From contig OY727096.1 of the NCBI GenBank assembly GCA_963402885.1, positions 2,604,001-2,668,000 on the forward strand: 64,000 bases of DNA, in the 5' to 3' direction. Of the stretch, positions 28,188-52,400 are shown piece after piece (position 1 is the stretch's first letter; every line of letters starts with the position of its first letter). The position numbers and the translations under genes are program-made. A model generated the notes under the pieces. It had not been told where the DNA came from. It was given only the letters and a program-made list of their open reading frames with translations, and made no database searches. Origin of the DNA: Antedon bifida. Taxonomy: Eukaryota > Echinodermata > Crinoidea > Comatulida > Antedonidae.

Positions 28188-28495
28188 TTAATCTTGAAAT
28201 GAACAATCCCGGTTTTGTTCACAAACACAACTATCGAACACTTCAACATTGATTTCCTTGACAGCACCACTAGCGTCGCATTGAACAGGAATCATTTTTC
28301 TAACGGGTTCAAACGGTCTACAACATCCGCATGTTTGTGAACGCGATGCCATCATGTTTTCGACCATTCCATTTGTTGCTGATCGTGACGCGCATTTACC
28401 GCTGCATTCATCAACAGAAAATGTTGCATTGCACACTGATCCATCATCAAACTGTACGTTGTGTACTTTCTCAACTCGACGGTGGCGACAATTTC
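28188..28495 (-). CDS. Gene B exon 37: C-terminal cystine knot (CTCK) and stop
   Basis: A 308-nt final exon. G-N-C-R-H-R-R-V, C-N-A-T-F-S-V-D-E-C-S-G-K-C, Q-T-C-G-C-C-R-P, V-Q-C-D-A-S-G and C-V-C-E match the CTCK pattern of mucins, VWF and norrin. It ends C-S-F-Q-D then TAA. In mucins and VWF this domain forms the first disulphide-linked dimers in the ER; the same role is inferred here. Confidence 0.94.
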
Positions 28496-31400
28496 CTGAA
28501 AAAAGGATTAAATATCTGGTAAACGTAGGCCTACATTACAAAGATTAAATTACATTATTAAGATGAACAGAAGTTTGTTTTCATGTGTAATAATTGAATA
28601 TCCTTGGTTGAGATGTTAAAAAAGGCATTATACATTGCAATACTATTGAATGATGTACTATTGAATGTAATATTACATGGTGTAATATTACATGATGCAC
28701 TATTGCATCATGCACTATTGCATCATGTACTATTGCATCATGTACTATTTGATGATGTACTATTGGATGATGTACTAGAAAGAATCTAGCACCAGCTTAA
28801 TACAAAAACTAACCTGCGGTTGATGCTGGTACAACATTCATGCTACCATCATAATGTTCTGCAAAATGCAAAAGAAATACACAACATGACAATGTTTGCA
28901 TAATGCATTGAGTGTACTTCGAGGGTGTACTTTAATATTGATGTTTTGATTACACAATATGGTACATATATTTGCAAATGCATACAATAACTGGACTGTT
29001 TTTGGGATTCTATCTGTCAACATTGTATACTGTTATGAGAGATATATGCAGTATGACATATGGTATGAAGGTTTGCTGTCAAAAGACAGGATACTGCATG
29101 CTGTTTATTTTGATTTGACTTGGGTGTCCAGACAATTGTAGTTAGTCTACTTATGAGATGTTTTTAGAATTAGCTTTAAAAGAATTTATTGTATGTTGTA
29201 TGTTGCAAAGATACCTAAGACAAGAATTCAGGAATTTCTGTAGATATTAAACCAAGCATTGTTTACTGCAAGAAAGTAAAATAGAGCTTACCACAAGATT
29301 CACATGCACCGTTTTTGAAATAGAATCCTTTGCCGCACCCACATCCGGAGCGTCTCTGCCATGGTTCACACACGTCACTAACACTACACACAGAGTTGAC
29401 GCATCCACATTCCTTGAATTCAAGACCAGCGGAGCAAGATGTATCTAGAAAACACAGTGAACAAATTTAATTAATTTAAAGATAAATTGGTTTAAAGATG
29501 TATTGTCCCTCAAAAATATGAAAAATGAAGATTAATTAAATCAAACTTTGAATAGGTTATTTTGTAGTTTTAATAAAGTGAAAACAGAAAAAAATAATGT
29601 TTCACTTATAAAATAACATGATAAATGGTTAAATTCAACCAAAAATCCATTGGCTGGCAGCCAATTTGACCATTTTTTGCTTTAAATTCCAGTTTTTTCA
29701 GGTAAATAAATTTTTTTCGATCCAATTTTTGGTCAAAGTCAATAATTATTATGTGACATTAAAATGGCATATTCAACAACAAAAATTTAAAAAAATTATT
29801 TTTCAGGGGGACAATACATCTTAAAAAATGGTTACTCTAAAATGATTTTACACAGATTCACTATATATACAGTACTATGAAATCCAGAATGACAAACAAT
29901 TACGAACAATAAGTACAAGATATCTTATAATAGCGCCATTACAGAATAATTATAAAACTTCAAGAAAACATAAATAATTACTTACCGCATCCTACTTCTT
30001 TCCTCCAACTCAAACATCTAGATGATTTTTGTTCATATTCTGTTACCATGGCACTAATGACGGAGCAGGCGAAAAACTGATTGCACGCATTACCTGCCAT
30101 ACACATGACGTAGTATTTAGAGACATCTACGACATCACGGGTAACATCAAAGACTGGCATACTCAATGCATCACACAAACTTGTTGTACAAGAAACTGTA
30201 TTAAAAAACAAACAAATGGATACAATCATGTATTGTTCCTCACCAAGTACAATATTCATCACAATAAAAAGAGAAAGAGCAAAACACTAACCTGCTACTA
30301 AAACTGTGCCTGCAGTTGGCAATGTTTCAGGACCACTAATTCCACCGGTAGTACCGGATGCTCCAGAGTCTGTACCATCAGAACCACCAGATACAACTGT
30401 ACCACTCATACCTCCACTGGTGTGTGATCCTCCAGTAGCACCTGATGCTCCAGAATCTGTACCATCAGTACCACCAGATACAACTGTTCCACTCATTCCT
30501 CCACTGGTTTGTGATCCTCCAGTAGCACCGGATGCTCCAGAATCTGTACCATCAGTACCACCAGATACAACTGTTCCATTCATGCCTCCACTGGTGTGTG
30601 ATCCTCCAGTTGTTGAACCAGAATCGATTCCACCTTGTCCTCCCATGGAGCCTGAATCTGTAACTCCTCCTTGGCTGCACAATTCTGGGCAAACAAGTCT
30701 AATCATGTAATTTGCACAAGGCTTTCCTTCACTATTAGTACACCTTAAACCAAATGCTACATCACACTGGACTGACTGATCGTAAACACCATTGTTTGTT
30801 TGACACTGGACTCCCTTGGGGTTTTTACAACTTAATGTTGGATATCGTGCAAAGATGTCGTCAATAGACTCAATTTCATATTGAGCAGATGGATCAACAT
30901 TGCCACCATTTTCATCGTCGAACCACTGTGTCCAACAGAAACCTGTAAAATAAAAAATAAGTTTAAAATATAAGAATCATGTAAAAGAATGTTGTAATTT
31001 TACAACAAATATTGGACGTATTTAAATTATAGTGTAGCTTCATTTCAAAAGCTTTTCTAATATTAATAGTATTTTGTTTATGCCAAAAAATCTTAAAGTA
31101 CCTGTCACAATGCAGATATCTGTGAAATGAAAAATAATGTTAAGAGTATAAACAATTTTGTAATTTCAAAACAACCATTTTAAACATTTTCTTACAATAT
31201 AGTGTTGCATTATTTTAAAATGGATTTGTAATAGTATTTTGTTTATGGTAATAAACCTTAAAGTACCTGTAACACTGGGTATCTTTACTCCTGTACCACC
31301 AGACACAACTGTTCCACTGGTTTGTGATCCTCCAGTAGCACCTGATGCTCCAGAGTCTGTACCATCAGTACCACCAGATACAACTGTTCCACTCATTCCT

Positions 31401-34400
31401 CCACTGGTTTGTGATCCTCCAGTAGCACCGGATGCTCCAGAGTCTGTACCATCAGTACCACCAGATACAACTGTACCACTTATTCCTCCACTGGTTTGTG
31501 ATCCTCCAGTAGCACCGGATGCTCCAGAGTCTGTACCATCAGTACCGCCAGAAACAACTGTTCCGCTGATTCCTCCAGTAGTTTGTGATCCTCCTGTAGC
31601 ACCGGATGCTCCAGAATCTGTACCACCAGATACAACTGTTCCACTCATGCCTCCACTGGTGTGTGATCCTCCAGTTGTTGAACCAGAATCTATTCCACCT
31701 TGTCCTCCCATGGAGCCTGAATCTGTAACTCCTCCTTGGCTGCACAATTCTGGGCAAACAAATCGGATCATGTAATTTGCACAAGTCTTTCCTTCACTAT
31801 TAGTACACCTTAAACCAAATGCTACATCACACTGGACTGACTGATCGTAAACACCATTGTTTGTTTGACACTGGACTCCCTTAGGGTTTTTACAACTTAA
31901 TGTTGGATATTGTGCAAAGATGTCGTCAATAGACTCAATTTCATATTGAGCAGATGGATCAACATTGCCACCATTTTCATCGTCGAACCACTGTGTCCAA
32001 CAGAAACCTGTCAAATAAAAAATTATGTTTAAAATATAAGCATCATGTAAAAGAATGTTGTAATTTTCTAATAACAATTTAAATTGTATAAATTGTACAT
32101 TTTCATACAATACTGTATAAATGAAGTTTCGTTTAAATTGGTTTTGTAATAGTTTTTTGATTACGGTAATAAATCTTAAAGTACCTGTCACACTGGGTAT
32201 CTTTACTCCTGTACCACCAGACACAACTGTTCCACTGGTTTGTGATCCTCCAGTAGCACCTGATGCTCCAGAGTCTGTACCATCAGTACCACCAGATACA
32301 ACTGTACCACTCATGCCTCCACTGGTTTGTGATCCTCCAGTAGCACCGGATGCTCCAGAGTCTGTGCCATCAGTACCACCAGATACAACTGTACCACTAA
32401 TCCCTCCACTGGTTTGTGATCCTCCAGTAGCACCTGATGCTCCAGAGTCTGTACCATCAGTACCACCAGATACAACTGTTCCACTGATTCCTCCAGTTGT
32501 TTGTGATCCTCCTGTAGCACCAGATGCTCCAGAATCTGTACCATCAGTACCACCAGATACAACTGTTCCACTCATGCCTCCACTGGTGTGTGATCCTCCA
32601 GTTGTTGAACCAGAATCTATTCCACCTTGTCCTCCCATGGAGCCTGAATCTGTAACTCCTCCTTGGCTGCACAATTCTGGGCAAACAAATCGGATCATGT
32701 AATTTGCACAAGTCTTTCCTTCACTATTAGTACACCTTAAACCAAATGCTACATCACACTGGACTGACTGATCGTAAACACCATTGTTTGTTTGACATTG
32801 GACTCCCTTAGGGTTTTTACAACTTAATGTTGGATATTGTGCAAAGATGTCGTCAATAGACTCAATTTCGTATTGAGCAGATGGATCAACATTGCCACCA
32901 TTTTCATCGTCGAACCACTGTGTCCAACAGAAACCTGTTAAATAAAAAATAATGTTTAAAATATAAGCATGATGTAAAAGAATGTTGTAATTTTCTAATA
33001 ACAATTTAAATTGTATAAATTTTACATTTTCATACAATACTGTATAATGTAGTTTCATTTAAATTGGTTTTGTAATAGTATTTTGATTATGGTAATAAAT
33101 CTTAAAGTACCTGTCACACTGGGTATCTTTACTCCTGTACCACCAGACACAACTGTTCCACTGGTTTGTGATCCTCCAGTAGCACCTGATGCTCCAGAGT
33201 CTGTACCATCAGTACCACCAGATACAACTGTACCACTCATGCCTCCACTGGTTTGTGATCCTCCAGTAGCACCGGATGCTCCAGAGTCTGTGCCATCAGT
33301 ACCACCAGATACAACTGTACCACTAATCCCTCCACTGGTTTGTGATCCTCCAGTAGCACCTGATGCTCCAGAGTCTGTACCATCAGTACCACCAGATACA
33401 ACTGTTCCACTGATTCCTCCAGTTGTTTGTGATCCTCCTGTAGCACCAGATGCTCCAGAATCTGTACCATCAGTACCACCAGATACAACTGTTCCACTCA
33501 TGCCTCCACTGGTGTGTGATCCTCCAGTTGTTGAACCAGAATCTATTCCACCTTGTCCTCCCATGGAGCCTGAATCTGTAACTCCTCCTTGGCTGCACAA
33601 TTCTGGGCAAACAAATCGGATCATGTAATTTGCACAAGTCTTTCCTTCACTATTAGTACACCTTAAACCAAATGCTACATCACACTGGACTGACTGATCG
33701 TAAACACCATTGTTTGTTTGACATTGGACTCCCTTAGGGTTTTTACAACTTAATGTTGGATATTGTGCAAAGATGTCGTCAATAGACTCAATTTCGTATT
33801 GAGCAGATGGATCAACATTGCCACCATTTTCATCGTCGAACCACTGTGTCCAACAGAAACCTGTTAAATAAAAAATAATGTTTAAAATATAAGCATGATG
33901 TAAAAGAATGTTGTAATTTTCTAATAACAATTTAAATTGTATAAATTTTACATTTTCATACAATACTGTATAATGTAGTTTCATTTAAATTGGTTTTGTA
34001 ATAGTATTTTGATTATGGTAATAAATCTTAAAGTACCTGTCACACTGGGTATCTTTACTCCTGTACCACCAGACACAACTGTTCCACTGGTTTGTGATCC
34101 TCCAGTAGCACCTGATGCTCCAGAGTCTGTACCATCAGTACCACCAGATACAACTGTACCACTCATGCCTCCACTGGTGTGTGATCCTCCAGTAGCACCT
34201 GATGCTTCAGAGTCTGTACCATCAGTACCGCCAGATACGACTGTTCCACTGGTTTGTGATCCTCCAGTAGCACCTGATGCTCCAGAGTCTGTACCATCAG
34301 TACCACCTGATACAACTGTACCACTCATGCCTCCACTGGTTTGTGATCCTCCAGTAGCACCTGATGCTCCAGAGTCTGTACCATCAGTACCACCAGATAC

Positions 34401-37400
34401 AACTGTTCCGCTGATTCCTCCAGTTGTTTGTGATCCTCCTGTAGCACCGGATGCTCCAGAATCAGTACCACCAGATACAACTGTTCCACTCATGCCTCCA
34501 CTGGTGTGTGATCCTCCAGTTGTTGAACCAGAATCTATTCCACCTTGTCCTCCCATGGAGCCTGAATCTGTAACTCCTCCTTGGCTGCACAATTCTGGGC
34601 AAACAAATCGGATCATGTAATTTGCACAAGTCTTTCCTTCACTATTAGTACACCTTAAACCAAATGCTACATCACATTGGACTGACTGATCGTAAACACC
34701 ATTGTTTGTTTGACATTGGACTCCCTTAGGGTTTTTACAACTTAATGTTGGATATTGTGCAAAGATGTCGTCAATAGACTCAATTTCGTATTGAGCAGAT
34801 GGATCAACATTGCCACCATTTTCATCGTCGAACCACTGTGTCCAACAGAAACCTTTAAAATAAAAAATTATGTTTAAAATATAAGCATCATGTAAAAGAA
34901 TGTTGTAATTTTCTAATAACAATTTAAATTGTATAAATTGTACATTTTCATACAATACTGTATAAATGAAGTTTCGTTTAAATTGGTTTTGTAATAGTTT
35001 TTTGATTACGGTAATAAATCTTAAAGTACCTGTCACACTGGGTATCTTTACTCCTGTACCACCAGACACAACTGTTCCACTGGTTTGTGATCCTCCAGTA
35101 GCACCTGATGCTCCAGAGTCTGTACCATCAGTACCACCTGATACAACTGTTCCACTCATGCCTCCACTGGTTTGTGATCCTCCAGTAGCACCGGATGCTC
35201 CAGAGTCTGTGCCATCAGTACCACCAGATACAACTGTACCACTAATCCCTCCACTGGTTTGTGATCCTCCAGTAGCACCTGATGCTCCAGAGTCTGTACC
35301 ATCAGTACCACCAGATACAACTGTTCCACTGATTCCTCCAGTTGTTTGTGATCCTCCTGTAGCACCAGATGCTCCAGAATCTGTACCATCAGTACCACCA
35401 GATACAACTGTTCCACTCATGCCTCCACTGGTGTGTGATCCTCCAGTTGTTGAACCAGAATCTATTCCACCTTGTCCTCCCATGGAGCCTGAATCTGTAA
35501 CTCCTCCTTGGCTGCACAATTCTGGGCAAACAAATCGGATCATGTAATTTGCACAAGTCTTTCCTTCACTATTAGTACACCTTAAACCAAATGCTACATC
35601 ACACTGGACTGACTGATCGTAAACACCATTGTTTGTTTGACACTGGACTCCCTTAGGGTTTTTACAACTTAATGTTGGATATTGTGCAAAGATGTCGTCA
35701 ATAGACTCAATTTCATATTGAGCAGATGGATCAACATTGCCACCATTTTCATCGTCGAACCACTGTGTCCAACAGAAACCTGTAAAATAAAAAATAATGT
35801 TTAAAATATAAGCATCATGTAAAAGAATGTTGTAATTTTCTAATAACAATTTAAATTGTATAAATATTTTACATTTTCATACAATACTGTATAAATGAAG
35901 TTTCATTTAAATTGGTTTTGTAATAGTATTTTGATTACGGTAATAAATCTTAAAGTACCTGTCACACTGGGTATCTTTTCTCCTGTACCACCAGACACAA
36001 CTGTTCCACTTGTTTGTGATCCTCCAGCAGCACCTGATGCTCCAGAGTCTGTACCATCAGTACCACCAGATACAACTGTTCCACTCATGCCTCCACTGGT
36101 GTGTGATCCTCCAGTAGCACCGGATGCTCCAGAATCTGTACCATCAGTACCGCCAGATACAACTGTTCCACTCATGCCTCCACTGGTTTGTGATCCTCCA
36201 GTAGCACCTGATGCTCCAGAGTCTGTACCATCAGTACCACCAGACACAACTGTTCCACTTATTCCTCCACTGGTTTCTGATCCTCCAGTAGCACCTGATG
36301 ATCCAGAGTCTGTACCATCAGTACCACCAGATACAACTGTTCCACTCATGCCTCCACTGGTTTCTGATCCTCCAGTAGCACCTGATGCTCCAGAGTCTGT
36401 ACCATCAGTACCACCAGAAACAACTGTTCCGCTGATTCCTCCAGTAGTTTGTGATCCTCCTGTAGCACCGGATGCTCCAGAATCTGTACCACCAGATACA
36501 ACTGTTCCACTCATGCCTCCACTGGTGTGTGATCCTCCAGTTGTTGAACCAGAATCTATTCCACCTTGTCCTCCCATGGAGCCTGAATCTGTAACTCCTC
36601 CTTGGCTGCACAATTCTGGGCAAACAAATCGGATCATGTAATTTGCACAAGTCTTTCCTTCACTATTAGTACACCTTAAACCAAATGCTACATCACACTG
36701 GACTGACTGATCGTAAACACCATTGTTTGTTTGACATTGGACTCCCTTAGGGTTTTTACAACTTAATGTTGGATATTGTGCAAAGATGTCGTCAATAGAC
36801 TCAATTTCGTATTGAGCAGATGGATCAACATTGCCACCATTTTCATCGTCGAACCACTGTGTCCAACAGAAACCTGTCAAATAAAAAATAATGTTTAAAA
36901 TATAAGCATGATGTAAAAGAATGTTGTAATTTTCTAATAACAATTTAAATTGTATAAATTTTACATTTTCATACAATACTGTATAATGTAGTTTCATTTA
37001 AATTGGTTTTGTAATAGTATTTTGATTATGGTAATAAATCTTAAAGTACCTGTCACACTGGGTATCTTTACTCCTGTACCACCAGACACAACTGTTCCAC
37101 TGGTTTGTGATCCTCCAGTAGCACCTGATGCTCCAGTGTCTGTACCATCAGTACCACCAGATACAACTGTACCACTCATGCCTCCACTGGTTTGTGATCC
37201 TCCAGTAGCACCTGATGCTCCAGAGTCTGTACCATCAGTACCGCCAGATACAACTGTTCCACTGGTTTGTGATCCTCCAGTAGCACCGGATGCTCCAGAA
37301 TCTGTACCATCAGTACCACCAGATACAACTGTTCCACTCATGCCTCCACTGGTGTGTGATCCTCCAGTAGCACCTGATGCTTCAGAATCTGTACCATCAG

Positions 37401-40400
37401 TACCACCAGATACAACTGTTCCACTCATGCCTCCACTGGTGTGTGATCCTCCAGTTGTTGAACCAGAATCGATTCCACCTTGTCCTCCCATAGAGCCTGA
37501 ATCTGTAACTCCTCCTTGGCTGCACAATTCTGGGCAAACAAATCGGATCATGTAATTTGCACAAGTCTTTCCTTCACTATTAGTACACCTTAAACCAAAT
37601 GCTACATCACACTGGACTGACTGATCGTAAACACCATTGTTTGTTTGACACTGGACTCCCTTAGGGTTTTTGCAACTTAATGTTGGATATCGTGCAAAGA
37701 TGTCGTCAATAGACTCAATTTCATATTGAGCAGATGGATCAACATTGCCACCATTTTCATCGTCGAACCACTGTGTCCAACAGAAACCTGTCAAATAAAA
37801 AATAATGTTTAAAATATAAGCATGATGTAAATAAATGTTGTAATTTTCTAATAAAAATTTAAATTGTATAAATGTTACATTTTCATACAATACTGTATAA
37901 TGTAGTTTCATTTAAATTGGTTTTGTAATAGTGTTTTGATTATGGTAATAAATCTTAAAGTACCTGTAACACTGGGTATCTTTACTCCTGTACCACCAGA
38001 CACAACTGTTCCACTGGTTTGTGATCCTCCAGTAGCACCTGATGCTCCAGAGTCTGTACCATCAGTACCACCAGATACAACTGTTCCACTCATGCCTCCA
38101 CTGGTGTGTGATCCTCCAGTAGCACCTGATGATCCAGAGTCTGTACCATCAGTACCACCAGATACAACTGTTCCACTCATGCCTCCACTGGTTTGTGATC
38201 CTCCAGTAGCACCTGATGCTCCAGAGTCTGTACCATCAGTACCACCAGATACAACTGTTCCACTCATGCCTCCACTGGTGTGTGATCCTCCAGTAGCACC
38301 TGATGATCCAGAGTCTGTACCATCAGTACCACCAGATACAACTGTTCCACTCATGCCTCCACTGGTGTGTGATCCTCCAGTAGCACCTGATGATCCAGAG
38401 TCTGTACCATCAGTACCACCAGATACAACTGTTCCACTTATTCCTCCACTGGTTTGTGATCCTCCAGTAGCACCTGATGCTCCAGAGTCTGTACCATCAG
38501 TACCACCAGATACAACTGTACCACTCATGCCTCCACTGGTTTGTGATCCTCCAGTAGCACCTGATGCTCCAGAATCTGTACCATCAGTACCACCAGATAC
38601 AACTGTTCCACTCATGCCTCCACTGGTGTGTGATCCTCCAGTGGCACCGGATGCTCCAGAATCTGTACCATCAGTACCACCTGATACAACTGTTCCACTC
38701 ATTCCTCCACTGGCTTCTGATTCTCCAGTAGCACCTGATGCTCCAGAGTCTGTACCATCAGTACCGCCAGATACAACTGTTCCGCTGATTCCTCCAGTTG
38801 TTTGTGATTCTCCTGTAGCACCGGATGCTCCAGAATCTGTACCATCAGTACCACCAGATACAACTGTTCCACTCATGCCTCCACTGGTGTGTGATCCTCC
38901 AGTTGTTGAACCAGAATCGATTCCACCTTGTCCTCCCATGGAGCCTGAATCTGTAACTCCTCCTTGGCTGCACAATTCTGGGCAAACAAATCGGATCATG
39001 TAATTTGCACAAGTCTTTCCTTCACTATTAGTACACCTTAAACCAAATGCTACATCACACTGGACTGACTGATCATAAACACCATTGTTTGTTTGACACT
39101 GGACTCCCTTAGGGTTTTTGCAACTTAATGTTGGATATCGTGCAAAGATGTCGTCAATAGACTCAATTTCATATTGAGCAGATGGATCAACATTGCCACC
39201 ATTTTCATCGTCGAACCACTGTGTCCAACAGAAACCTGTTAAATAAGAAATAATGTTTAAAATATAAGCATGATGTAAAAGAATGTTGTAATTTTCTAAT
39301 AAAAATTTAAATTGTATACATTTTACATTTTCATACAATACTGTATAATGTAGTTTCATTTAAATTGATTTTGTAATAGTATTTTGAATATTGTAATAAA
39401 TCTTAAAGTACCTGTAACACTGGGTATCTTTACTCCTGTACCACCAGACACAACTGTTCCACTGGTTTGTGATCCTCCAGTAGCACCTGATGCTCCAGAG
39501 TCTGTACCATCAGTACCACCAGAAACAACTGTTCCGCTAATTCCTCCAGTTGTTTGTGATCCTCCTGTAGCACTGGATGCTCCAGAATCTGTACCATCAG
39601 TACCACCAGATACAACTGTTCCACTCATTCCTCCACTCGTGTGTGATCCTCCAGTAGCACCTGATGCTCCAGAGTCTGTACCATCAGTACCACCAGAAAC
39701 AACTGTTCCGCTGATTCCTCCAGTTGTTTGTGATCCTCCTGTAGCGCCGGATGCTCCAGAATCTGTACCATCAGTACCACCAGATACAACTGTTCCACTC
39801 ATGCCTCCACTGGTGTGTGATCCTCCAGTAGCACCGGATGCTCCAGAATCTGTACCATCAGTACCACCTGATACAACTGTTCCACTCATTCCTCCACTGG
39901 CTTCTGATCCTCCAGTAGCACCTGATGCTCCAGAGTCTGTACCATCAGTACCACCAGATACAACTGTTCCGCTGATTCCTCCAGTTGTTTGTGATCCTCC
40001 TGTAGCACCGGATGATCCAGAATCTGTACCATCAGTACCACCAGATACAACTGTTCCACTCATACCTCCACTGGTGTGTGATCCTCCAGTTGTTGAACCA
40101 GAATCGATTCCACCTTGTCCTCCCATGGAGCCTGAATCTGTGACTCCTCCTTGGCTGCACAATTCTGGGCAAACAAATCGGATCATGTAATTTGCACAAG
40201 TCTTTCCTTCACTATTAGTACACCTTAAACCAAATTCTACATCACACTGGACTGACTGATCGTAAACACCATTGTTTGTTTGACACTGGACTCCCTTAGG
40301 GTTTTTGCAACTTAATGTTGGATATCGTGCAAAGATGTCGTCAATAGACTCAATTTCATATTGAGCAGATGGATCAACATTGCCACCATTTTCATCGTCG

Positions 40401-43400
40401 AACCACTGTGTCCAACAGAAACCTGTTAAATAAGAAATAATGTTTAAAATATAAGCATGATGTAAAAGAATGTTGTAATTTTCTAATAAAAATTTAAATT
40501 GTATAAATGTTACATTTTCATACAATACTGTATAATGTAGTTTCATTTAAATTGGTTTTGTAATAGTGTTTTGATTATGGTAATAAATCTTAAAGTACCT
40601 GTAACACTGGGTATCTTTACTCCTGTACCACCAGACACAACTGTTCCACTTGTTTCTGATCCTCCAGTAGCACCTGATGCTCCAGAGTCTGTACCATCAG
40701 TACCACCAGATACAACTGTTCCACTCATGCCTCCACTGGTTTGTGATCCTCCAGTAGCACCTGATGCTCCAGAATCTGTACCATCAGTACCACCAGATAC
40801 AACTGTTCCACTCATGCCTCCACTGGTGTGTGATCCTCCAGTAGCACCTGATGATCCAGAGTCTGTACCATCAGTACCACCAGATACAACTGTTCCACTC
40901 ATGCCTCCACTGGTTTGTGATCCTCCAGTAGCACCTGATGCTCCAGAATCTGTACCATCAGTACCACCAGATACAACTGTTCCACTCATGCCTCCACTGG
41001 TGTGTGATCCTCCAGTGGCACCGGATGCTCCAGAATCTGTACCATCAGTACCACCTGATACAACTGTTCCACTCATTCCTCCACTGGCTTCTGATTCTCC
41101 AGTAGCACCTGATGCTCCAGAGTCTGTACCATCAGTACCGCCAGATACAACTGTTCCGCTGATTCCTCCAGTTGTTTGTGATTCTCCTGTAGCACCGGAT
41201 GCTCCAGAATCTGTACCATCAGTACCACCAGATACAACTGTTCCACTCATGCCTCCACTGGTGTGTGATCCTCCAGTTGTTGAACCAGAATCGATTCCAC
41301 CTTGTCCTCCCATGGAGCCTGAATCTGTAACTCCTCCTTGGCTGCACAATTCTGGGCAAACAAATCGGATCATGTAATTTGCACAAGTCTTTCCTTCACT
41401 ATTAGTACACCTTAAACCAAATGCTACATCACACTGGACTGACTGATCATAAACACCATTGTTTGTTTGACACTGGACTCCCTTAGGGTTTTTGCAACTT
41501 AATGTTGGATATCGTGCAAAGATGTCGTCAATAGACTCAATTTCATATTGAGCAGATGGATCAACATTGCCACCATTTTCATCGTCGAACCACTGTGTCC
41601 AACAGAAACCTGTTAAATAAGAAATAATGTTTAAAATATAAGCATGATGTAAAAGAATGTTGTAATTTTCTAATAAAAATTTAAATTGTATAAATTTTAC
41701 ATTTTCATACAATACTGTATAATGTAGTTTCATTTAAATTGATTTTGTAATAGTATTTTGAATATTGTAATAAATCTTAAAGTACCTGTAACACTGGGTA
41801 TCTTTACTCCTGTACCACCAGACACAACTGTTCCACTGGTTTGTGATCCTCCAGTAGCACCTGATGCTCCAGAGTCTGTACCATCAGTACCACCAGAAAC
41901 AACTGTTCCGCTAATTCCTCCAGTTGTTTGTGATCCTCCTGTAGCACTGGATGCTCCAGAATCTGTACCATCAGTACCACCAGATACAACTGTTCCACTC
42001 ATTCCTCCACTCGTGTGTGATCCTCCAGTAGCACCTGATGCTCCAGAGTCTGTACCATCAGTACCACCAGAAACAACTGTTCCGCTGATTCCTCCAGTTG
42101 TTTGTGATCCTCCTGTAGCGCCGGATGCTCCAGAATCTGTACCATCAGTACCACCAGATACAACTGTTCCACTCATGCCTCCACTGGTGTGTGATCCTCC
42201 AGTAGCACCGGATGCTCCAGAATCTGTACCATCAGTACCACCTGATACAACTGTTCCACTCATTCCTCCACTGGCTTCTGATCCTCCAGTAGCACCTGAT
42301 GCTCCAGAGTCTGTACCATCAGTACCACCAGATACAACTGTTCCGCTGATTCCTCCAGTTGTTTGTGATCCTCCTGTAGCACCGGATGATCCAGAATCTG
42401 TACCATCAGTACCACCAGATACAACTGTTCCACTCATGCCTCCACTGGTGTGTGATCCTCCAGTTGTTGAACCAGAATCGATTCCACCTTGTCCTCCCAC
42501 GGAGCCTGAATCTGTAACTCCTCCTTGGCTGCACAATTCTGGGCAAACAAATCGGATCATGTAATTTGCACAAGTCTTTCCTTCACTATTAGTACACCTT
42601 AAACCAAATTCTACATCACACTGGACTGACTGATCGTAAACACCATTGTTTGTTTGACACTGGACTCCCTTAGGGTTTTTGCAACTTAATGTTGGATATC
42701 GTGCAAAGATGTCGTCAATAGACTCAATTTCATATTGAGCAGATGGATCAACATTGCCACCATTTTCATCGTCGAACCACTGTGTCCAACAGAAACCTGT
42801 TAAATAAGAAATAATGTTTAAAATATAAGCATGATGTAAAAGAATCTTTTAATTTTCTAATAACAATTTAAATTGTATAAATTTTACATTTTCATACAAT
42901 ACTGTATAATGTAGTTTCATTTAAATTGGTTTTGTAATAGTGTTTTGATTATGGTAATAAATCTTAAAGTACCTGTAACACTGGGTATCTTTACTCCTGT
43001 ACCACCAGACACAACTGTTCCACTGGTTTGTGATCCTCCAGTAGCACCTGATGCTCCAGAGTCTGTACCATCAGTACCACCAGATACAACTGTTCCACTC
43101 ATTCCTCCACTCGTGTGTGATCCTCCAGTAGCACCTGATGCTCCAGAGTCTGTACCATCAGTACCACCAGAAACAACTGTTCCGCTGATTCCTCCAGTTG
43201 TTTGTGATCCTCCTGTAGCGCCGGATGCTCCAGAATCTGTACCATCAGTACCACCAGATACAACTGTTCCACTCATGCCTCCACTGGTGTGTGATCCTCC
43301 AGTAGCACCGGATGCTCCAGAATCTGTACCATCAGTACCACCTGATACAACTGTTCCACTCATTCCTCCACTGGCTTCTGATCCTCCAGTAGCACCTGAT

Positions 43401-46400
43401 GCTCCAGAGTCTGTACCATCAGTACCACCAGATACAACTGTTCCGCTGATTCCTCCAGTTGTTTGTGATCCTCCTGTAGCACCGGATGATCCAGAATCTG
43501 TACCATCAGTACCACCAGATACAACTGTTCCACTCATGCCTCCACTGGTGTGTGATCCTCCAGTTGTTGAACCAGAATCGATTCCACCTTGTCCTCCCAT
43601 GGAGCCTGAATCTGTAACTCCTCCTTGGCTGCACAATTCTGGGCAAACAAATCGGATCATGTAATTTGCACAAGTCTTTCCTTCACTATTAGTACACCTT
43701 AAACCAAATTCTACATCACACTGGACTGACTGATCGTAAACACCATTGTTTGTTTGACACTGGACTCCCTTAGGGTTTTTGCAACTTAATGTTGGATATC
43801 GTGCAAAGATGTCGTCAATAGACTCAATTTCATATTGAGCAGATGGATCAACATTGCCACCATTTTCATCGTCGAACCACTGTGTCCAACAGAAACCTGT
43901 TAAATAAGAAATGTTTAAAATATAAGCATGATGTAAAAGAATGTTGTAATTTTCTAATAAAAATTTAAATTGTATAAATTTTACATTTTCATACAATACT
44001 GTATAATGTAGTTTCATTTAAATTGGTTTTGTAATAGTGTTTTGATTATGGTAATAAATCTTAAAGTACCTGTAACACTGGGTATCTTTACTCCTGTACC
44101 ACCAGACACAACTGTTCCACTGGTTTGTGATCCTCCAGTAGCACCTGATGCTCCAGAGTCTGTACCATCAGTACCACCAGATACAACTGTTCCACTCATG
44201 CCTCCACTGGTTTGTGATCCTCCTGTAGCACCGGATGATCCAGAATCTGTACCATCAGTACCACCAGATACAACTGTTCCACTCATGCCTCCACTGGTTT
44301 CTGATCCTCCTGTAGCACCTGATGCTCCAGAGTCTGTACCATCAGTACCACCAGATACAACTGTTCCACTCATGCCTCCACTGGTGTGTGATCCTCCAGT
44401 AGCACCTGATGCTCCAGAGTCTGTACCATCAGTACCACCAGATACAACTGTACCACTCATTCCTCCACTGGTTTGTGATCCTTCAGTAGCACCTGATGCT
44501 CCAGAGTCTGTGCCATCAGTACCACCAGATACAACTGTTCCACTCATTCCTCCACTGGTTTGTGATCCTCCAGTAGCACCGGATGCTCCAGAGTCTGTAC
44601 CATCACTACCACCAGAAATAACTGTTCCACTCATTCCTCCACTGGTGTGTGATCCTCCAGTTGTTGAACCAGAATCTATGCCACCTTCTCCTGCAGTAGT
44701 AGAGCCTGAATCTGTAGCTCCCTGTTGACTACATAATTCTGGGCAGATGAGTCGAATTCTGTAATTGATACATGTTTTTTCTTTGGTGTTAGTACACCTT
44801 AAGCCAAAGACTGTATCACATTGAACATTGTGATCATACTTTCCACTGGGAGCATGACATTGGATTCCTTTAGGGTTCTTGCAACTCAAAGTTGGATATC
44901 TTGCATAGATGTCATCAATCGATTCAATCTCATATTTGTTAAAAGGAGAAACATTACCACCATTTTCATCATCAAACCATTGTGTCCAACAGTAGTCTAA
45001 AAATGCAGAAAGTTACATTAAATTGATTTAACAATTTTAGCATTCCTGTAAAGATAATTTGACAGTTTTAAATAAAATTATTCCAAAATTTCGAAACAAC
45101 TAATATCTAAATTCAATATATTTTTGAATAATCAAATATTAATTTACCTGATATACTGGGGAGTGATCCTACTGAAGCACCATTTGTTCCAGTAGTTACT
45201 TCGGTTACTGTTTTACTATTTTCTTCACTTATACCAGTACCAGATGTTCCCGAGTCTGTGCCAGAACCTGTGCCAGAATCTGTGCCACTGGTGCTGTCAG
45301 ATCCTGTTCCACTCGCTCCGCCACCTGGTTGCGATCCATCAGCATCTGTTATCAATTCTGGTACTCCTTCCTGACTACATAACTCAGCACAAACAAGGCG
45401 AATCTTATAGTTTAAACATGTTTCGCCTTGGTTGTTCACACACTTCAAACCAAATCTGGCGTCACATTGCACGTTTTGAGAGGTTTGGTCGTAAGAAATA
45501 CCATCAATTGTTTGACATTGAATCCCTGTAGGATATCTACAGCTCTTTGTTGGATACATTGCGAAAATGTCTGTGATAAATTCACTTTCAAATTGGGCTG
45601 ATGGAGATACCTCACCACCATTCTCGTCATCAAACCATTGTGTCCAGCAATAACCTACCAAAAGTAATAAGTTAAGAATTATTATTACATTAAAGATGTA
45701 TTGTCCCCCCGAAAAAATAATTCTTAACCAAATTTTTGTTGAATATGCCATTTTAATGTAACATAATAGTTATCCACTTTGACCAAAAATTGGATAAAAA
45801 AAAATGGATTTACCTGAAAAAACTGTAATTTAAATCAAAAAAATGGCCAATGGGTTTTTGGTTGAATTTAACCATTTATTTTGTCAATTTATAGTGGAAA
45901 AAATTATTTTTCTTTCATTTTTTTTCTATGGAAGTTATTACCTTTATTAAAACTACAAAATAACATATTTAAAGTCTGATTTAATTAATCTTCATTTTTC
46001 ATGTTTTTGTGGGCCATCTTTAATGGTTGCATTGTTTTACAGTTGTAACAATTGTAATTCATTGTATAGATGTAAACAAAATTTATACATTTTGGAGTGA
46101 ATAATTAAAATAAAATTATATTACAAAATTATGCAATACAATATATATTAATAAAATAACAATCATCTACCTTCAGCATCAAGATATAGACCACTTGGTT
46201 GAGCCGCACCAGTTGAAATTTCAGCACCCATGCCGCCACTAGCTGGTGTTGCACCTGCAGCAGCACCACCAGTTCCAGAATCTGGAGCATCAGTATCAAC
46301 TTCACCAGATGGCTCTTCATCTTCACCAGAATCTTTTGGTTCAGTATCTTTACCATCTTGTCCTGATACAATTTCAGCACCCATGCCGCCACTAGCTGGT

Positions 46401-49400
46401 GTTTCACCTGCAGCACCATCGGTTCCTGAATCTGGAGCATCAGTATCAACTTCACCAGATGGCTCTTCATCTTCACCAGAATCTTTTGGTTCAGTATCTT
46501 TACCATCTTGTCCTGATACAATTTCAGCACCCATGCCGCCACTAGCTGGTGTTGCACCTGCAGCAGCACCACCAGTTCCAGAATCTGGAGCATCAGTATC
46601 AACTTCACCAGATGGCTCTTCATCTTCACCAGAATCTTTTGGTTCAGTATCTTTACCATCTTGTCCTGATACAATTTCAGCACCCATGCCGCCACTAGCT
46701 GGTGTTGCACCTGCAGCAGCACCACCAGTTCCAGAATCTGGAGCATCAGTATCAACTTCACCAGATGGCTCTTCATCTTCACCAGAATCTTTTGGTTCAG
46801 TATCTTTACCATCTTGTCCTGATACAATTTCAGCACCCATGCCGCCACTAGTTGGTGTTTCACCTGCAGCACCATCGGTTCCTGAATCTGGAGCATCAGT
46901 ATCAACTTCACCAGATGGCTCTTCATCTTCACCAGAATCTTTTGGTTCAGTATCTTTACCATCTTGTCCTGATACAATTTCAGCACCCATGCCACCACTA
47001 GCTGGTGTTTCACCTGCAGCACCATCGGTTCCTGAATCTGGAGCATCAGTATCAACTTCACCAGATGGCTCTTCATCTTCACCAGAATCTTTTGGTTCAG
47101 TATCTTTACCATCTTGTCCTGATACAATTTCAGCACCTGTGCCGCCACTAGCTGGTGTTTCACCTGCAGCACCATCGGTTCCTGAATCTGGAGCATCAGT
47201 ATCAACTTCACCAGATGGCTCTTCATCTTCACCAGAATCTTTTGGTTCAGTATCTTTACCATCTTGTCCTGATACAATTTCAGCACCCATGCCGCCACTA
47301 GCTGGTGTTTCACCTGCAGCACCATTGGTTCCTGAATCTGGAGCATCAGTATCAACTTCACCAGATGGCTCTTCATCTTCACCAGAATCTTTTGGTTCAG
47401 TATCTTTACCATCTTGTCCTGATACAATTTCAGCACCCATGCCGCCACTAGCTGGTGTTTCACCTGCAGCACCATCGGTTCCTGAATCTGGAGCATCAGT
47501 ATCAACTTCACCAGATGGCTCTTCATCTTCACCAGAATCTTTTGGTTCAGTATCTTTACCATCTTGTCCCGATACAATTTCAGCACCCATGCCGCCACTA
47601 GCTGGTGTTTCACCTGCAGCACCATCAGTTCCAGAATCTGGAGCATCAGTATCAACTTCACCAGATGGCTCTTCATCTTCACCAGAATCTTTTGGCTCAG
47701 TATCTTTACCATCTTGCCCTGAAACAATCTCAGCACCCATGCCACCACTAGCTGGTGTTTCACCAGCAGCAGTGCCACTGGTTCCTGTGCCCATGCCTCC
47801 ACTAGCTGGTGTTTCACCTGCAGCAGTGCCACTGGTTCCTGTGCCCATGCCTCCACTTGTTTCTGAATCTCCTTCACCAACATTTCCTGCACCACCCATA
47901 CTTCCAGTTTGTGTTCCAACTGATACAGTGCCACCAGTAGCAGTGCCACCTCCACCAGTTTGAGAGCCACCAGAAACGTGTGATCCTGTACTTCCACCAG
48001 ATACATATGTGCCACCTGTAGAGCTAGAACCTCCAATCAATCCATACTCGCGAATTATATATTGACTGCACAAATCTGAGCAAATAAATCTGATTTTATA
48101 GTTGTAACATGTGTTTCCTGGACTGTTTGTACATCTTAAACCATAGCTTGGATCACACTGTACATTCTGTGAAGTTTGATCATATCCAACTCCATCAGTG
48201 GTCTGGCATTGGATTGCCGTTGGATTTCTACAGCTCAAAGATGGATACCGAGCATAAATGTCATCGATTGATTCAACCTCATAGTTTGCAGATGGGGAGA
48301 CATTTCCACCATTTTCATCATCAAACCACTGAGTCCAGCAATATGCTAAATGAAGTACATACATTATTGAAATTTAAATTTAAAATCTATATATCATATT
48401 ACTTTTTAATTCGCGCTGATTACTAGCTGCATTATGGGAGTATGTTTCCATACATGTTTGATCCCAAAAAATGACTGGGGTAATAATGTTCAGCGCTTAG
48501 AGGTTTCACAACATTAGGCTCTATATAAATCCAGGATATTATTATTATTAATTCACTTGCAGCAGCTGTGTTGATACAGCTATTACAGCTATAAAATAAT
48601 GATGAATAAATTGATGTAAGAGTTCTATAATTTGCTGAAAACTTACAATTTCCTAGGTATGTCCAAGTGATTTTGTATCCCTCGGTAATGGTCCAAAAGA
48701 ATTGGTAATAACGATAACTGTATGTAATACCTACAAAAACAATGTTATTTTTTTAACAATAACTGTATGTATTTAGAAAACCAATATATTTCTAAACGAT
48801 AAGTCTATCTTAAATACACTTCTTTGTTGTCTGACATAGCAACATTTACAAGTGAACCTGGGAAATTGAACACAGATCTCAAACAATACCATTACCTTAT
48901 GTCCAAAAAAAAAGGATAATTTTGTTGTAGTTTTTTTTTAGTGTTGTAACTATACATATACAGTTTTCAAACATTAGGGAGTTTTCGCAACCTTACGAAT
49001 ACGATAACGAAAACGGATACGTCACACATTTGTGAAACTTTTGAGCTGATCCCCATTTCATATTCGTAAGACGTATTCGTGTTGACGAATATCACCAGTC
49101 ATATTCGTAACTACAAAACGATAGTTTTTGATCTATTTTGCACATTTTGCATTTAAATCAGGAATGATTCATGATTATAATATAATTATACTTTTATTGA
49201 AAGTAATTTACTAAAGTAATTTACTAAAATGCCAGGTCAATTTTGATAAATAGCAGTTTTTAAAGTCCTCAATCGCTTTGATGTTACGCTAGGCCTAGGC
49301 AGCCAAGCACCAAGCAACACGTACCTGCGCTTCGCTCAAATTTACCGCAGTCATATTTTGGACGGCGCCCTCAATATTTCGTTGCCATGCAAAACAGATT

Positions 49401-52400
49401 TTTACTGGCTTACGAAAAACCAATACGTGTGCGTGACGTACCCGTTTTCGTTATCGTATTCATAAGATTGCGAAAACTCCCTAATAACTGTAACTGTATC
49501 TACTATCGTTGTTACTTCTTCGTTTAGTGTTGTCACTATATTGAAGATGACCTTACCATAGGTTGCAATTTGATAGCCAGTACCACAACTTGGACATTCA
49601 TCATCTGGTTCGATACAAACACCGTTGTACATAATTGCATTCTTTGGACAGCATCCTTCAATACAGGTTCCACCACATACATCGACACAAGGACTGTACT
49701 GCAAGCATTCAGGACCGCTGCTAGCACCACCGTTAGCACACTGCATTGCTGCAATTTAAAACATTAAAAGAATTATTTACACAATTTAATAGACATAAGC
49801 TTAATTATGTTTGTACAGTATTTAGTACAGTCTTGTCTACACTATCAAACTTTATGTGACAAAAAAATGCGATGTGCCCATATTTGGACATGATGATGTC
49901 ATACCACTACCATATTTGACTATATCACTACCATATTTGGTAGTTTGATAGTGTAGACAGAACTTTAACGATAACAAAGATGGGTTGCAAATGTCGGCAA
50001 AGTTACTGTTACAGATGAGAAATTAGGGGTCATTCAATTTGCAATGACCTAGGGACCAATTACCAGTACCAGTTGTGTCTTGGTCACGGACACCTTCTAC
50101 CCTAGATATAACAATACACTACATTACATAGCTAGTTTAACATTGCTACGTCGCTAATGACATATATGTGTCAACTGATTATTTTGACAGTTCTTTTTAA
50201 TAGAGTAGAGCTCTGTATATACTATCAAACTATGTGATGTCATATTTCAATGACATCATATCACTACCATATTTGGGCACACTTACGACAAAGATTATCG
50301 GTCCTCCATGAAACATGTACTCCGTGTTCATTACACTCCTGGGCATACGCCGCAATAGCGGTACACATACATTCACAGTCAGCACCAAAATCACAGGCAC
50401 AGGTATCAGATACACACTTATCATAGAACGGTTTTGGTGATACAAGACCGTGACACGCTCTGAACTTTGACCCTGTGATGACACTGCACTTCTTCTGTGC
50501 CCACAGCTCCAGATGAGGAGAAGATGCACAAGGCTCCACTACGATTGGGCTGGTATCTGGGCATGTTCTATGCACCTTTAAAAAAAGTTGATAATGACTT
50601 TAAATGAAAATTATATTGGATTTTGCACAAAAAAAATCCCCAATTCAGCTTGGCTGCAAAGGCTCCATGGTTTTACAGTACATGGTGTATCTCCAACTTT
50701 GTAACAAAATAATATTGATTTTTATCATGCAAATCTTAAAAACAGAGATATATATTGTTGAGTATTTGAAACCGATTTTCTTTTGAGCACAAGTTTTATT
50801 TTACAGACACAAGACAAGATAGAGTAATACCTTCCAACTATTTCCAAAGTCCACCACTGACATTACTTCATTGCTGTCTCTTGATTGAAAATCATTGGTT
50901 TTATTGCCGTCAAAATTACCACATAGACCATTAACCTACACAAAATAACATTTAAAACATTTAAATTATTTTGCTATTAATCACAGATAATAACATCTCC
51001 ACGTAGTGGACCCAGGTACATTGGATTGGTAGCCAAGCATCACTACCAATCCAAGGTTTCTGGGTTCAAGTCCTGCGATGTCAGGATTTTTTCTAATTAC
51101 AAATTACAACTCCACTCCCAAAAGACTTGTAATAAGACTTTGTTTATGTAGAGCATCTTGTGTATATGTTTGTCCTGTGAACGGAATTGCCACCTTTAAA
51201 GGCCAGGTGCGGGAAAAAAATTTATATTTATCATACATTCCAACAATTATCGATCTATAGTTTCCCCTATGTTTCATATTTTTTGGGATTTTATTTGTGT
51301 TACAAGAGCTTGTTGAAAATAAGCACTTTCTTATCAGTGGGGGGATAGTTCAAATTACATAGTAAAATCTCTATTCTTTTGTACACACATTTTGTAAAAA
51401 GAGAGGCATTTTAAAAAGCTATGAAAAATAAACGGTGTGGTAAAAAATTTTATCAGATGACTAAATATAGGTAATATAACTTGAATATTACATTTCTGGT
51501 ATTTTTATCCAACTTCAAATTTTTATTTTCATGCTATAGCAAAAATTATCCACCGTATATCCACCATATTTTTTCACCTTCTAGGGAGTCACCAGACACG
51601 TTATTACATTAGGTTAACTACCTAACTACTGAAAAAAAGTCTTTCTGGTTTTTATGGAAGAATTTTGCCAAATTTTGTATTTGACCATATTAAGGGAAAT
51701 TCATGTTTTTTCGTCTTGATTTCTGTTACAAATATTTGATTTATGTACAATTAACCAAATATTATATTTAAAATTCATGCCTGTACCTGAGCTTTAAGAA
51801 GGATAGTGAATGAATTTATCTAAATATAAGAAAGATAGAGAAAGAGAATAATGCCTAAATCATAGTAAACAGGCATACATAATTGTTGCCGAATTTACCT
51901 TATTTCTTAAGAAAGGTTGAACTTTGACTTGCAACCATGTTCCTCTGTTCCACAAGATTGTATAGCCAAGACAAGAATCAACAATGATGTATTGACCACG
52001 CTCTCTTAAACTGAGACCTGCACCCCGTGGGGCAACTACTGGAGCACCTTGTACAAGTTTTAAAGTGTCCCATTGGCCCACAACTGGTAAAAACAAAAAT
52101 ATTATAATAATAATTAAGTTGCCTGTATTCCTTTGTGGATACTAATAACTGTAATAGTAATTGTAACCACTTTTTGTGCAATAATGTATGTGTTTTGTAT
52201 ATTTTATTTTTTTTGTTTACTATATATTCTATATATATACAGGCCTGTATATATATTTTTTTTTTATCGTACTAATATTTGCCAATCTTTAAGAAGAATT
52301 TCTATTGTTATTTTATCATGATAATGGACATAAGAAAGTTTTTTTTCAGTATACTCATTACCGTTGGTTTATCATTGGCGGTAAATCTATGTTATTCTCT

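What the first reader, a model, noticed from the sequence alone, without database searches (positions are those of the whole stretch)
30292..48345. Sixteen consecutive phase 1-1 WxxW exons in one mucin gene
Each exon starts with a WxxW Cys domain and ends in low-complexity repeats, and each length is a multiple of three, so any unit can be added, lost or skipped without a frameshift. The inner introns of exons 20-33 are 173-179 bp and nearly identical, which implies very recent duplication or conversion. Known gel-forming mucins carry far fewer WxxW domains alternating with PTS blocks.
Basis: partly seen in the sequence, partly recalled or inferred. Interest (0 to 1): 0.75.

Follow-up and report, generated by a model that had tools for sequence, protein, structure and literature searches.

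The report
Exon-by-exon amplified sticky mucin gene
An animal gene for what looks like a slime-forming protein holds sixteen copies of a sticky domain, each in its own interchangeable exon and most of them near-identical, so the gene can apparently gain or lose gel cross-linking units without breaking its reading frame.

Summary
Sixteen consecutive exons (minus strand, 48345-30292) each start with a WxxW/CysD domain, end in a low-complexity tail, are multiples of three and phase 1-1. Twelve of the 13 introns among the last 14 exons are 173-179 bp with 0-15 differences; the 13th is 324 bp. The DNA was found only at this locus. Upstream lie VWD, C8 and TIL domains; downstream only weak C8-like and cystine-knot-like frames.
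Corrections: tails are not PTS (units 3-16: 0.5% proline, 34% glycine), unlike the neighbouring mucin. The multiples of three are not independent. The WxxW count is not a record (skate 27, catshark 19).
The amplified unit is tail-intron-WxxW, so breakpoints probably lie in the 87-bp coding repeats. Changes between young units are mostly synonymous (8 of 11). The 324-bp intron is two old introns around an 18-nt remnant of a lost unit.
Best reading: a gel-forming-mucin-like "sticker and spacer" protein whose unit number evolves by in-frame unequal crossing-over or conversion. Skipping and population variation are untested. New variant of a known kind.

The parts
63037..63096 (-). candidate signal peptide, MSQRCLLQAFLLLAICMTSS (probable 5' end of gene A)
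   Evidence: hydrophobic start found by pattern, no signal-peptide predictor run; no VWD-like frame noticed among the open frames listed for the 20 kb upstream (by eye)
59588..59863 (-). TIL domain open frame
   Evidence: Pfam TIL 40.8 bits, cut-off 24.5
58129..58578 (-). VWD domain, first part; CGLCG motif downstream at about 57666
   Evidence: Pfam VWD 55.2 bits, cut-off 22.9, profile 1-92 of 156; motif
55186..55380 (-). C8 domain
   Evidence: Pfam C8 51.8 bits, cut-off 23.7
53695..54601 (-). two TIL domains (54353-54601 and 53695-54015)
   Evidence: Pfam TIL 47.2 and 42.2 bits
52573..52812 (-). second VWD domain, first part
   Evidence: Pfam VWD 57.6 bits, profile 1-70 of 156
50267..50599 (-). 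C8 domain
   Evidence: Pfam C8 80.8 bits
46171..48345 (-). WxxW exon 1, 2175 bp; tail of acidic Ser-Gly repeats (about 50 aa each)
45148..45654 (-). WxxW exon 2, 507 bp
   Evidence: Pfam 60.9 bits
44070..44996 (-). WxxW exon 3, 927 bp: old WxxW domain joined to a young tail (unit boundary inside the exon)
42973..43896 (-). WxxW exon 4, 924 bp (first fully young unit)
41786..42796 (-). WxxW exon 5, 1011 bp
40599..41609 (-). WxxW exon 6, 1011 bp
39412..40422 (-). WxxW exon 7, 1011 bp; long exact tracts shared by exons 5-6 and 7-8
37964..39235 (-). WxxW exon 8, 1272 bp (longest young tail)
37050..37787 (-). WxxW exon 9, 738 bp
35959..36873 (-). WxxW exon 10, 915 bp
35030..35779 (-). WxxW exon 11, 750 bp
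34037..34852 (-). WxxW exon 12, 816 bp; the only one of 16 acceptors ending AAG instead of CAG or TAG
33111..33860 (-). WxxW exon 13, 750 bp; identical to exon 14
32185..32934 (-). WxxW exon 14, 750 bp; identical to exon 13
31267..32007 (-). WxxW exon 15, 741 bp
30943..31266 (-). intron 15, 324 bp: two old intron copies (147 and 159 bp) around an 18-nt remnant
   Evidence: the left copy is also a separate DNA hit, 81% over query bases 1-92
31102..31119 (-). 18-nt remnant of a lost unit, still between AG and GT (possible 6-residue micro-exon)
30292..30942 (-). WxxW exon 16, 651 bp
   Evidence: Pfam 54 bits
29981..30286 (-). weak C8-like open frame directly after the array
   Evidence: Pfam C8 17.3 bits, below cut-off 23.7
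28191..28535 (-). C-terminal cystine-knot-like domain (CSGKC ... CGCC ... CVC)
   Evidence: Pfam DAN 19.8 bits (20 for the trimmed piece), below cut-off 22; motif

Best explanation
Gene A (about 63.1 to 28.2 kb, minus strand) encodes a secreted, gel-forming-mucin-like polymer. N-terminal VWD, C8 and TIL domains and a C-terminal cystine-knot-like domain link chains end to end. Between them lie 16 compact CysD 'stickers' spaced by disordered Gly/Ser/Thr tails, so the protein (4983 residues in the array alone) should form a soft gel whose reversible cross-link density depends on CysD number and spacing. At the gene level each sticker+spacer is one phase 1-1 exon. The 87-bp (29-codon) tail repeats offer in-register sites for unequal crossing-over or gene conversion, which add or delete tail-intron-WxxW units, or single 29-residue repeats, without a frameshift; selection keeps the CysD protein sequence constant. 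Shown: exon structure, phases, young unit identity, unit boundary inside exon 3, one lost unit, excess of synonymous change, CysD-like predicted fold. Inferred: secretion, polymerisation, gel stiffness, crossovers in tails as the main route, variation between individuals.
Confidence: 0.72

Rival explanations
1. The unit number is an assembly product: nearly identical units were wrongly expanded or collapsed.
For: A 1088-bp exact tract makes exons 13 and 14, with their flanks, identical; introns 12 and 13 and the first 330 nt of exons 10, 13 and 14 are identical. Such repeats are hard to assemble; reads were not available.
Against: The 13 young units (exons 4-16) have nine different tail lengths, 126-333 aa, and their own substitutions. 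Exons 13 and 14 are the only pair that the exact tracts of 420 bp or more show identical end to end, so merging them would leave 15. The window has no N, the contig is 34.1 Mb, and the DNA search found no stray copies elsewhere.
Confidence: 0.1
2. Mucin-proteoglycan hybrid: the Ser-Gly-rich tails, above all the acidic tail of exon 1, carry glycosaminoglycan chains rather than dense mucin-type O-glycans, making a hydrated spacer between CysD stickers.
For: 480 Ser-Gly in 3519 tail residues of the 16 units; in units 3-16, 416 against a shuffled mean of 190 (max 224 in 1000); 51 of 58 Ser-Gly in exon 1's tail have Asp or Glu within four residues. The 858-residue tail of neighbour gene B used for comparison has none. 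That acidic Ser-Gly is the usual xylosylation context is recalled.
Against: Ser-Gly also recurs because the tail is a 29-residue tandem repeat, so the excess is not independent; Ser and Thr make up 37% of units 3-16 and could carry O-GalNAc instead. Attachment was not tested.
Confidence: 0.22
3. The one-unit-per-exon design serves alternative splicing: phase 1-1 exons are skipped to tune protein length in each tissue.
For: All 16 exons are symmetric. Exon 12 has a weaker-looking acceptor (AAG), and introns 11 and 14 (177 bp) are open through in frame. Chicken Muc13 has one exon per repeat and its authors proposed the same idea (PMC1552070, passages).
Against: No transcript evidence. Phase-1 borders are also found in WxxW exons of other genes of this genome with one or two units, so symmetry looks inherited. 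Thirteen of 16 exons share one donor sequence.
Confidence: 0.2
4. The array is decaying, with no function for most units.
For: Copies are very recent, and one unit was lost down to 18 nt.
Against: 16 of 16 exons open with intact splice dinucleotides; 8 of 11 changes synonymous, P 0.0003 to 0.002.
Confidence: 0.03

Closest known systems
Human MUC5AC / MUC5B (gel-forming mucins; 9 and 7 CysD)
   Same: VWD/C8/TIL N-terminus, repeated CysD alternating with low-complexity spacers; cys-domain and spacer number varies between haplotypes (PMC11912381, passages; PMC10983947, passages).
   Different: Their mucin domain is one large exon (PMC9712336, passages); here 16 exons. Spacers are Pro/Thr/Ser there, Gly/Ser/Thr with 0.5% Pro here (units 3-16). 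Five-disulfide CysD there, eight cysteines here.
Chicken Muc13 (transmembrane mucin)
   Same: One exon per repeat unit, exons nearly identical (PMC1552070, passages).
   Different: 20-residue PTS repeats with SEA and transmembrane domains; a transmembrane, not a gel-forming mucin; no WxxW mentioned in the passages seen.
Fish Mucin-5AC of the lateral line (zebrafish 6, catshark 19, little skate 27 CysD)
   Same: Many CysD in one secreted gel protein (PMC11765562, passages).
   Different: Lacks the vWF and PTS domains of human MUC5AC; CysD form a continuous chain.
Oikosin-1 of Oikopleura dioica (13 CYS domains)
   Same: Invertebrate secreted protein with many CYS domains in a mucus structure (PMC6861317, passages; PMC4431476, passages).
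   Different: [quoted passage not shown] VWD domains not mentioned in the passages seen.
Neighbour gene B (window about 23-1 kb and on into L011) and mucin genes at C9:24.65-24.69 Mb and C9:17-19 kb of the same genome
   Same: All 7 WxxW exons looked at start in phase 1, and the 5 donors read are phase 1 (by eye); two introns at 24.68 Mb are near-copies, 6 of 98 sites differ.
   Different: One or two WxxW exons each in the stretches read; tails Thr/Pro-rich in gene B and the 24.65-24.69 Mb genes.

Membership tests
Mucin2_WxxW domain (PF13330) | profile match over the curated cut-off | tested here: met
   60.9 and 54 bits, cut-off 22.4, for the 2 array frames given; all 16 places over cut-off in the genome search
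Mucin2_WxxW domain (PF13330) | CysD fold | tested here: met
   [not shown]
Vertebrate-type CysD | five disulfides (ten cysteines) | tested here: not met
   eight cysteines per domain in the 6 array domains aligned (counted by eye); so filed under PF13330, not as the vertebrate form
Gel-forming mucin | N-terminal VWD, C8 and TIL domains | tested here: met
   VWD 55.2 and 57.6, C8 51.8 and 80.8, TIL 40.8, 47.2 and 42.2 bits, all over cut-off; two VWD found, three are typical (PMC1552070, passages)
Gel-forming mucin | C-terminal cystine knot | tested here: inconclusive
   DAN 19.8-20 bits, cut-off 22; cysteine pattern fits by eye
Gel-forming mucin | PTS domain (rich in Pro, Thr, Ser; definition from PMC1552070) | tested here: not met
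   units 3-16: Pro 0.5%, Ser+Thr 37%, Gly 34%; unit 1: Pro 6.8% but Ser+Thr 20%; unit 2: Pro 4.1%, Ser+Thr 38% over 74 residues
Gel-forming mucin | signal peptide, secretion, disulfide polymers, dense O-glycans | not testable with these tools
   only a pattern-found candidate signal peptide at 63096
Proteoglycan (Ser-Gly attachment region) | many Ser-Gly near acidic residues | tested here: met
   necessary, not sufficient; criterion recalled
Proteoglycan (Ser-Gly attachment region) | glycosaminoglycan chains present | not testable with these tools
   needs protein

The most novel reading that the evidence does not exclude
A self-adjusting gel gene: a mucin-proteoglycan hybrid in which 16 (plus one fossil) cassette exons, each one CysD sticker and one Ser-Gly spacer, are gained and lost at high rate through in-frame recombination in the coding minisatellite of the spacers, so that individuals differ in sticker number and hence in mucus stiffness, and single exons can also be skipped.
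Probability: 0.15. Interest if true: 0.75.

Novelty: new variant of a known kind. Interest (0 to 1): 0.45.

Why it matters
CysD number is thought to set the reversible cross-linking of mucus, and in humans it varies inside one giant, hard-to-assemble exon. Here each CysD is a separate, frame-neutral exon, most of them near-identical, with countable intron markers, so unit gain, loss and conversion can be read directly, and the effect of unit number on gel strength could be compared between individuals. It also suggests that a gel-forming-mucin-like framework can work with proline-poor Ser-Gly spacers, next to a Pro/Thr-rich mucin gene in the same genome.

Tried and rejected
Sixteen independent multiples of three: rejected, because exons 4-16 are young copies. 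Copies elsewhere in the genome: none found by DNA; the 16 hits are 13 full-length units, partial hits in exons 3 and 1, and the remnant in intron 15 (exon 2 is not hit). The tool scores only the best candidates and skips common words. Identifying the host: COX1 on contig C27 has 6 TGA inside. Pfam scores favour ATA=Ile (codes 4, 24, 9: 492, 492, 491.2 bits; codes 13, 21, 5: 488, 484.1, 483.8) but cannot tell codes 4, 9 and 24 apart. AAA at positions recalled as Asn, and 46% T in the coding strand (crinoid Poliometra 44.9% T, PMC10478607, abstract), suggest an echinoderm, perhaps a crinoid; this stays a lead, since flatworm mitochondria are recalled to be T-rich with the same code. Single-sequence PDB search gave only weak CysD matches (best E 0.032; 0.067). 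Frames with no Pfam match: 3 of 10, 1 of 10, 10 of 10, 1 of 4. Literature on echinoderm or exon-per-unit gel-forming mucins: the rows listed showed no report of such a gene; these were listings of the best rows only, the library lacks most subscription papers, and a paper asked for by DOI was not held. Searches for a genome paper of the host led nowhere.
Full report
WHAT IS THERE. The window is C9:2604001-2668000 of a 315.6-Mb, 27-contig assembly, without N. On the minus strand, sixteen exons between 48345 and 30292 each begin just before CWTQW and end in a low-complexity tail. All 16 follow AG, precede GT, are phase 1 at both ends, divisible by three and free of stops; they add up to 14,949 nt, 4983 codons. 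Thirteen share the donor CAG|GTACTTTA. Introns 3-14 are 173-179 bp; intron 15 is 324 bp; introns 1 and 2 are 516 and 151 bp.

THE GENE. Upstream on the same strand are a candidate signal peptide (63096) and TIL, VWD, C8, two TIL, VWD and C8, these seven over Pfam cut-offs. Three of the 10 frames and all 10 gave no match. Downstream are a C8-like frame (17.3 bits, cut-off 23.7) and a cystine-knot-like frame (DAN 19.8 bits, cut-off 22). I read this as one gene of about 35 kb; no transcript was seen. Gene B follows on the same strand, with VWD, a Methyltransf_FA domain, C8, two WxxW exons and a knot-like end in L011 (DAN 38.3 bits).

THE TAILS. Units 3-16 are 34% Gly, 20% Ser, 17% Thr and 0.5% Pro over 2815 residues. 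The compared tail of gene B's exon 5695-2753 (858 residues) is 39% Thr, 14% Glu, 11% Pro and 10% Ser, with no Ser-Gly. Units 3-16 hold 416 Ser-Gly against a shuffled mean of 190; unit 1's acidic tail has 58, of which 51 have Asp or Glu within four residues. The PTS description is therefore not met, and I do not file the gene as a PTS mucin in the strict sense; it is built, and probably works, like a gel-forming mucin. A repeat of unit 1 and one of unit 3 align at DNA level with a score that 0 of 500 shuffles reached; the stretch was picked because it looked alike, so this only suggests common origin.

HISTORY. The first 330 nt (domain and start of tail) of exons 4-16 differ at 0-10 sites; exon 3 differs from them at 79-82 of 327, exon 1 at 98-99 of 315 and exon 2 at 111-113 of 315. 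Introns 3-14 differ at 0-15 sites. Exon 3 is the key: an old WxxW domain on a young tail and a young intron. The duplicated unit is thus tail-intron-WxxW, with a boundary in the coding tail. In agreement, WxxW distances track the intron directly upstream (k=4-14, r 0.40, P 0.00025; k=4-15, r 0.35, P 0.006) more than the one beyond the tail (r 0.21, P 0.06), and the two introns flanking an exon do not track each other (r -0.06). The contrast is moderate. Exons 5-6 and 7-8 share exact tracts of 744 and 798 bp at the same 2374-bp offset, and a 1088-bp exact tract makes exons 13 and 14 identical, so the process is very recent.

A LOST UNIT. Intron 15 is two intron copies of 147 and 159 bp, differing from intron 12 at 24 of 147 and 21 of 153 sites and from each other at 29 of 142, around 18 nt between AG and GT. 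This looks like a unit deleted to 18 nt before the young copies spread. It keeps the frame whether spliced in or out.

SELECTION. Of 11 variable sites in the first 330 nt of exons 4-15, 8 are synonymous (listing, counted by eye; in the domain proper 5 of 7); 79% would change or stop the codon by chance (P 0.0003; 0.002 with transitions weighted fourfold). Introns vary at 20 of 173 sites. These units are constrained.

CONTEXT. Seven further WxxW exons (two of gene B, three at C9:24.65-24.68 Mb, two at C9:17-19 kb) start in phase 1, and the five donors that I could read are phase 1 too (by eye). Two introns of the 24.68 Mb gene are near-copies (6 of 98 sites). So the cassette looks like the rule in these mucin genes; gene A is the extreme. 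Hits on other contigs cover only profile positions 22-29 to 88 and probably have a different exon structure; not followed.

LITERATURE. Human MUC2, MUC5AC, MUC5B and MUC6 mucin domains are one exon each (PMC9712336, passages). Chicken Muc13 has one exon per PTS repeat, and its authors raised alternative splicing (PMC1552070, passages). CysD numbers: human 9, 7 and 2 (PMC11912381, passages), skate 27 and catshark 19 in a protein without vWF domains or PTS (PMC11765562, passages), Oikosin-1 13 (PMC6861317, passages; PMC4431476, passages). A 12-CYS protein stiffens mucus (PMC6861317), and cys-domain number varies between human haplotypes (PMC10983947, passages). What I did not find in print (listings) is the combination: VWD framework, 16 CysD in 16 symmetric exons, and Ser-Gly spacers.

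VERDICT. A real, recently amplified, frame-neutral exon array in a gel-forming-mucin-like gene: new variant of a known kind. Unit number should be checked with reads before any claim on count.

Noticed in passing
window 19579-20193 (-): Gene B carries a Methyltransf_FA (PF12248) domain (101.8 bits) among mucin-type domains.
   Followed up: no
window 31166-33058 and 33981-35876 (-): Introns 14 and 11 (177 bp each) are open in frame, so the frames run through exon-intron-exon for 630 and 631 codons; retention would be harmless.
   Followed up: partly
window 31102-31119 (-): 18-nt possible micro-exon inside intron 15, remnant of a lost unit.
   Followed up: yes
window 31.2-44.7 kb (+): Antisense of the tails is also open (187-365 codons in the listed frames) and proline-rich; probably a by-product of the repeat.
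   Followed up: no
window 3721-4984 (-): Gene B's PTS exon holds 486-bp super-repeats, 2.6 copies, 97% matches, another sign of recent homogenisation.
   Followed up: no
C9:24645001-24695000 (L014-L018): Second mucin cluster with Thr/Pro-rich exons, up to a 1606-codon frame, and two near-identical 98-bp introns.
   Followed up: partly
window 6666-7193 (-): Open frame of 175 aa that resembles, from recall, the end of a LINE-type retroelement; not searched.
   Followed up: no
C7, C8, C11, C12, C13 and C15, and C9:15010302, hits: WxxW-family hits that lack the first 21-28 profile positions, so probably split by an intron; a different gene type.
   Followed up: no
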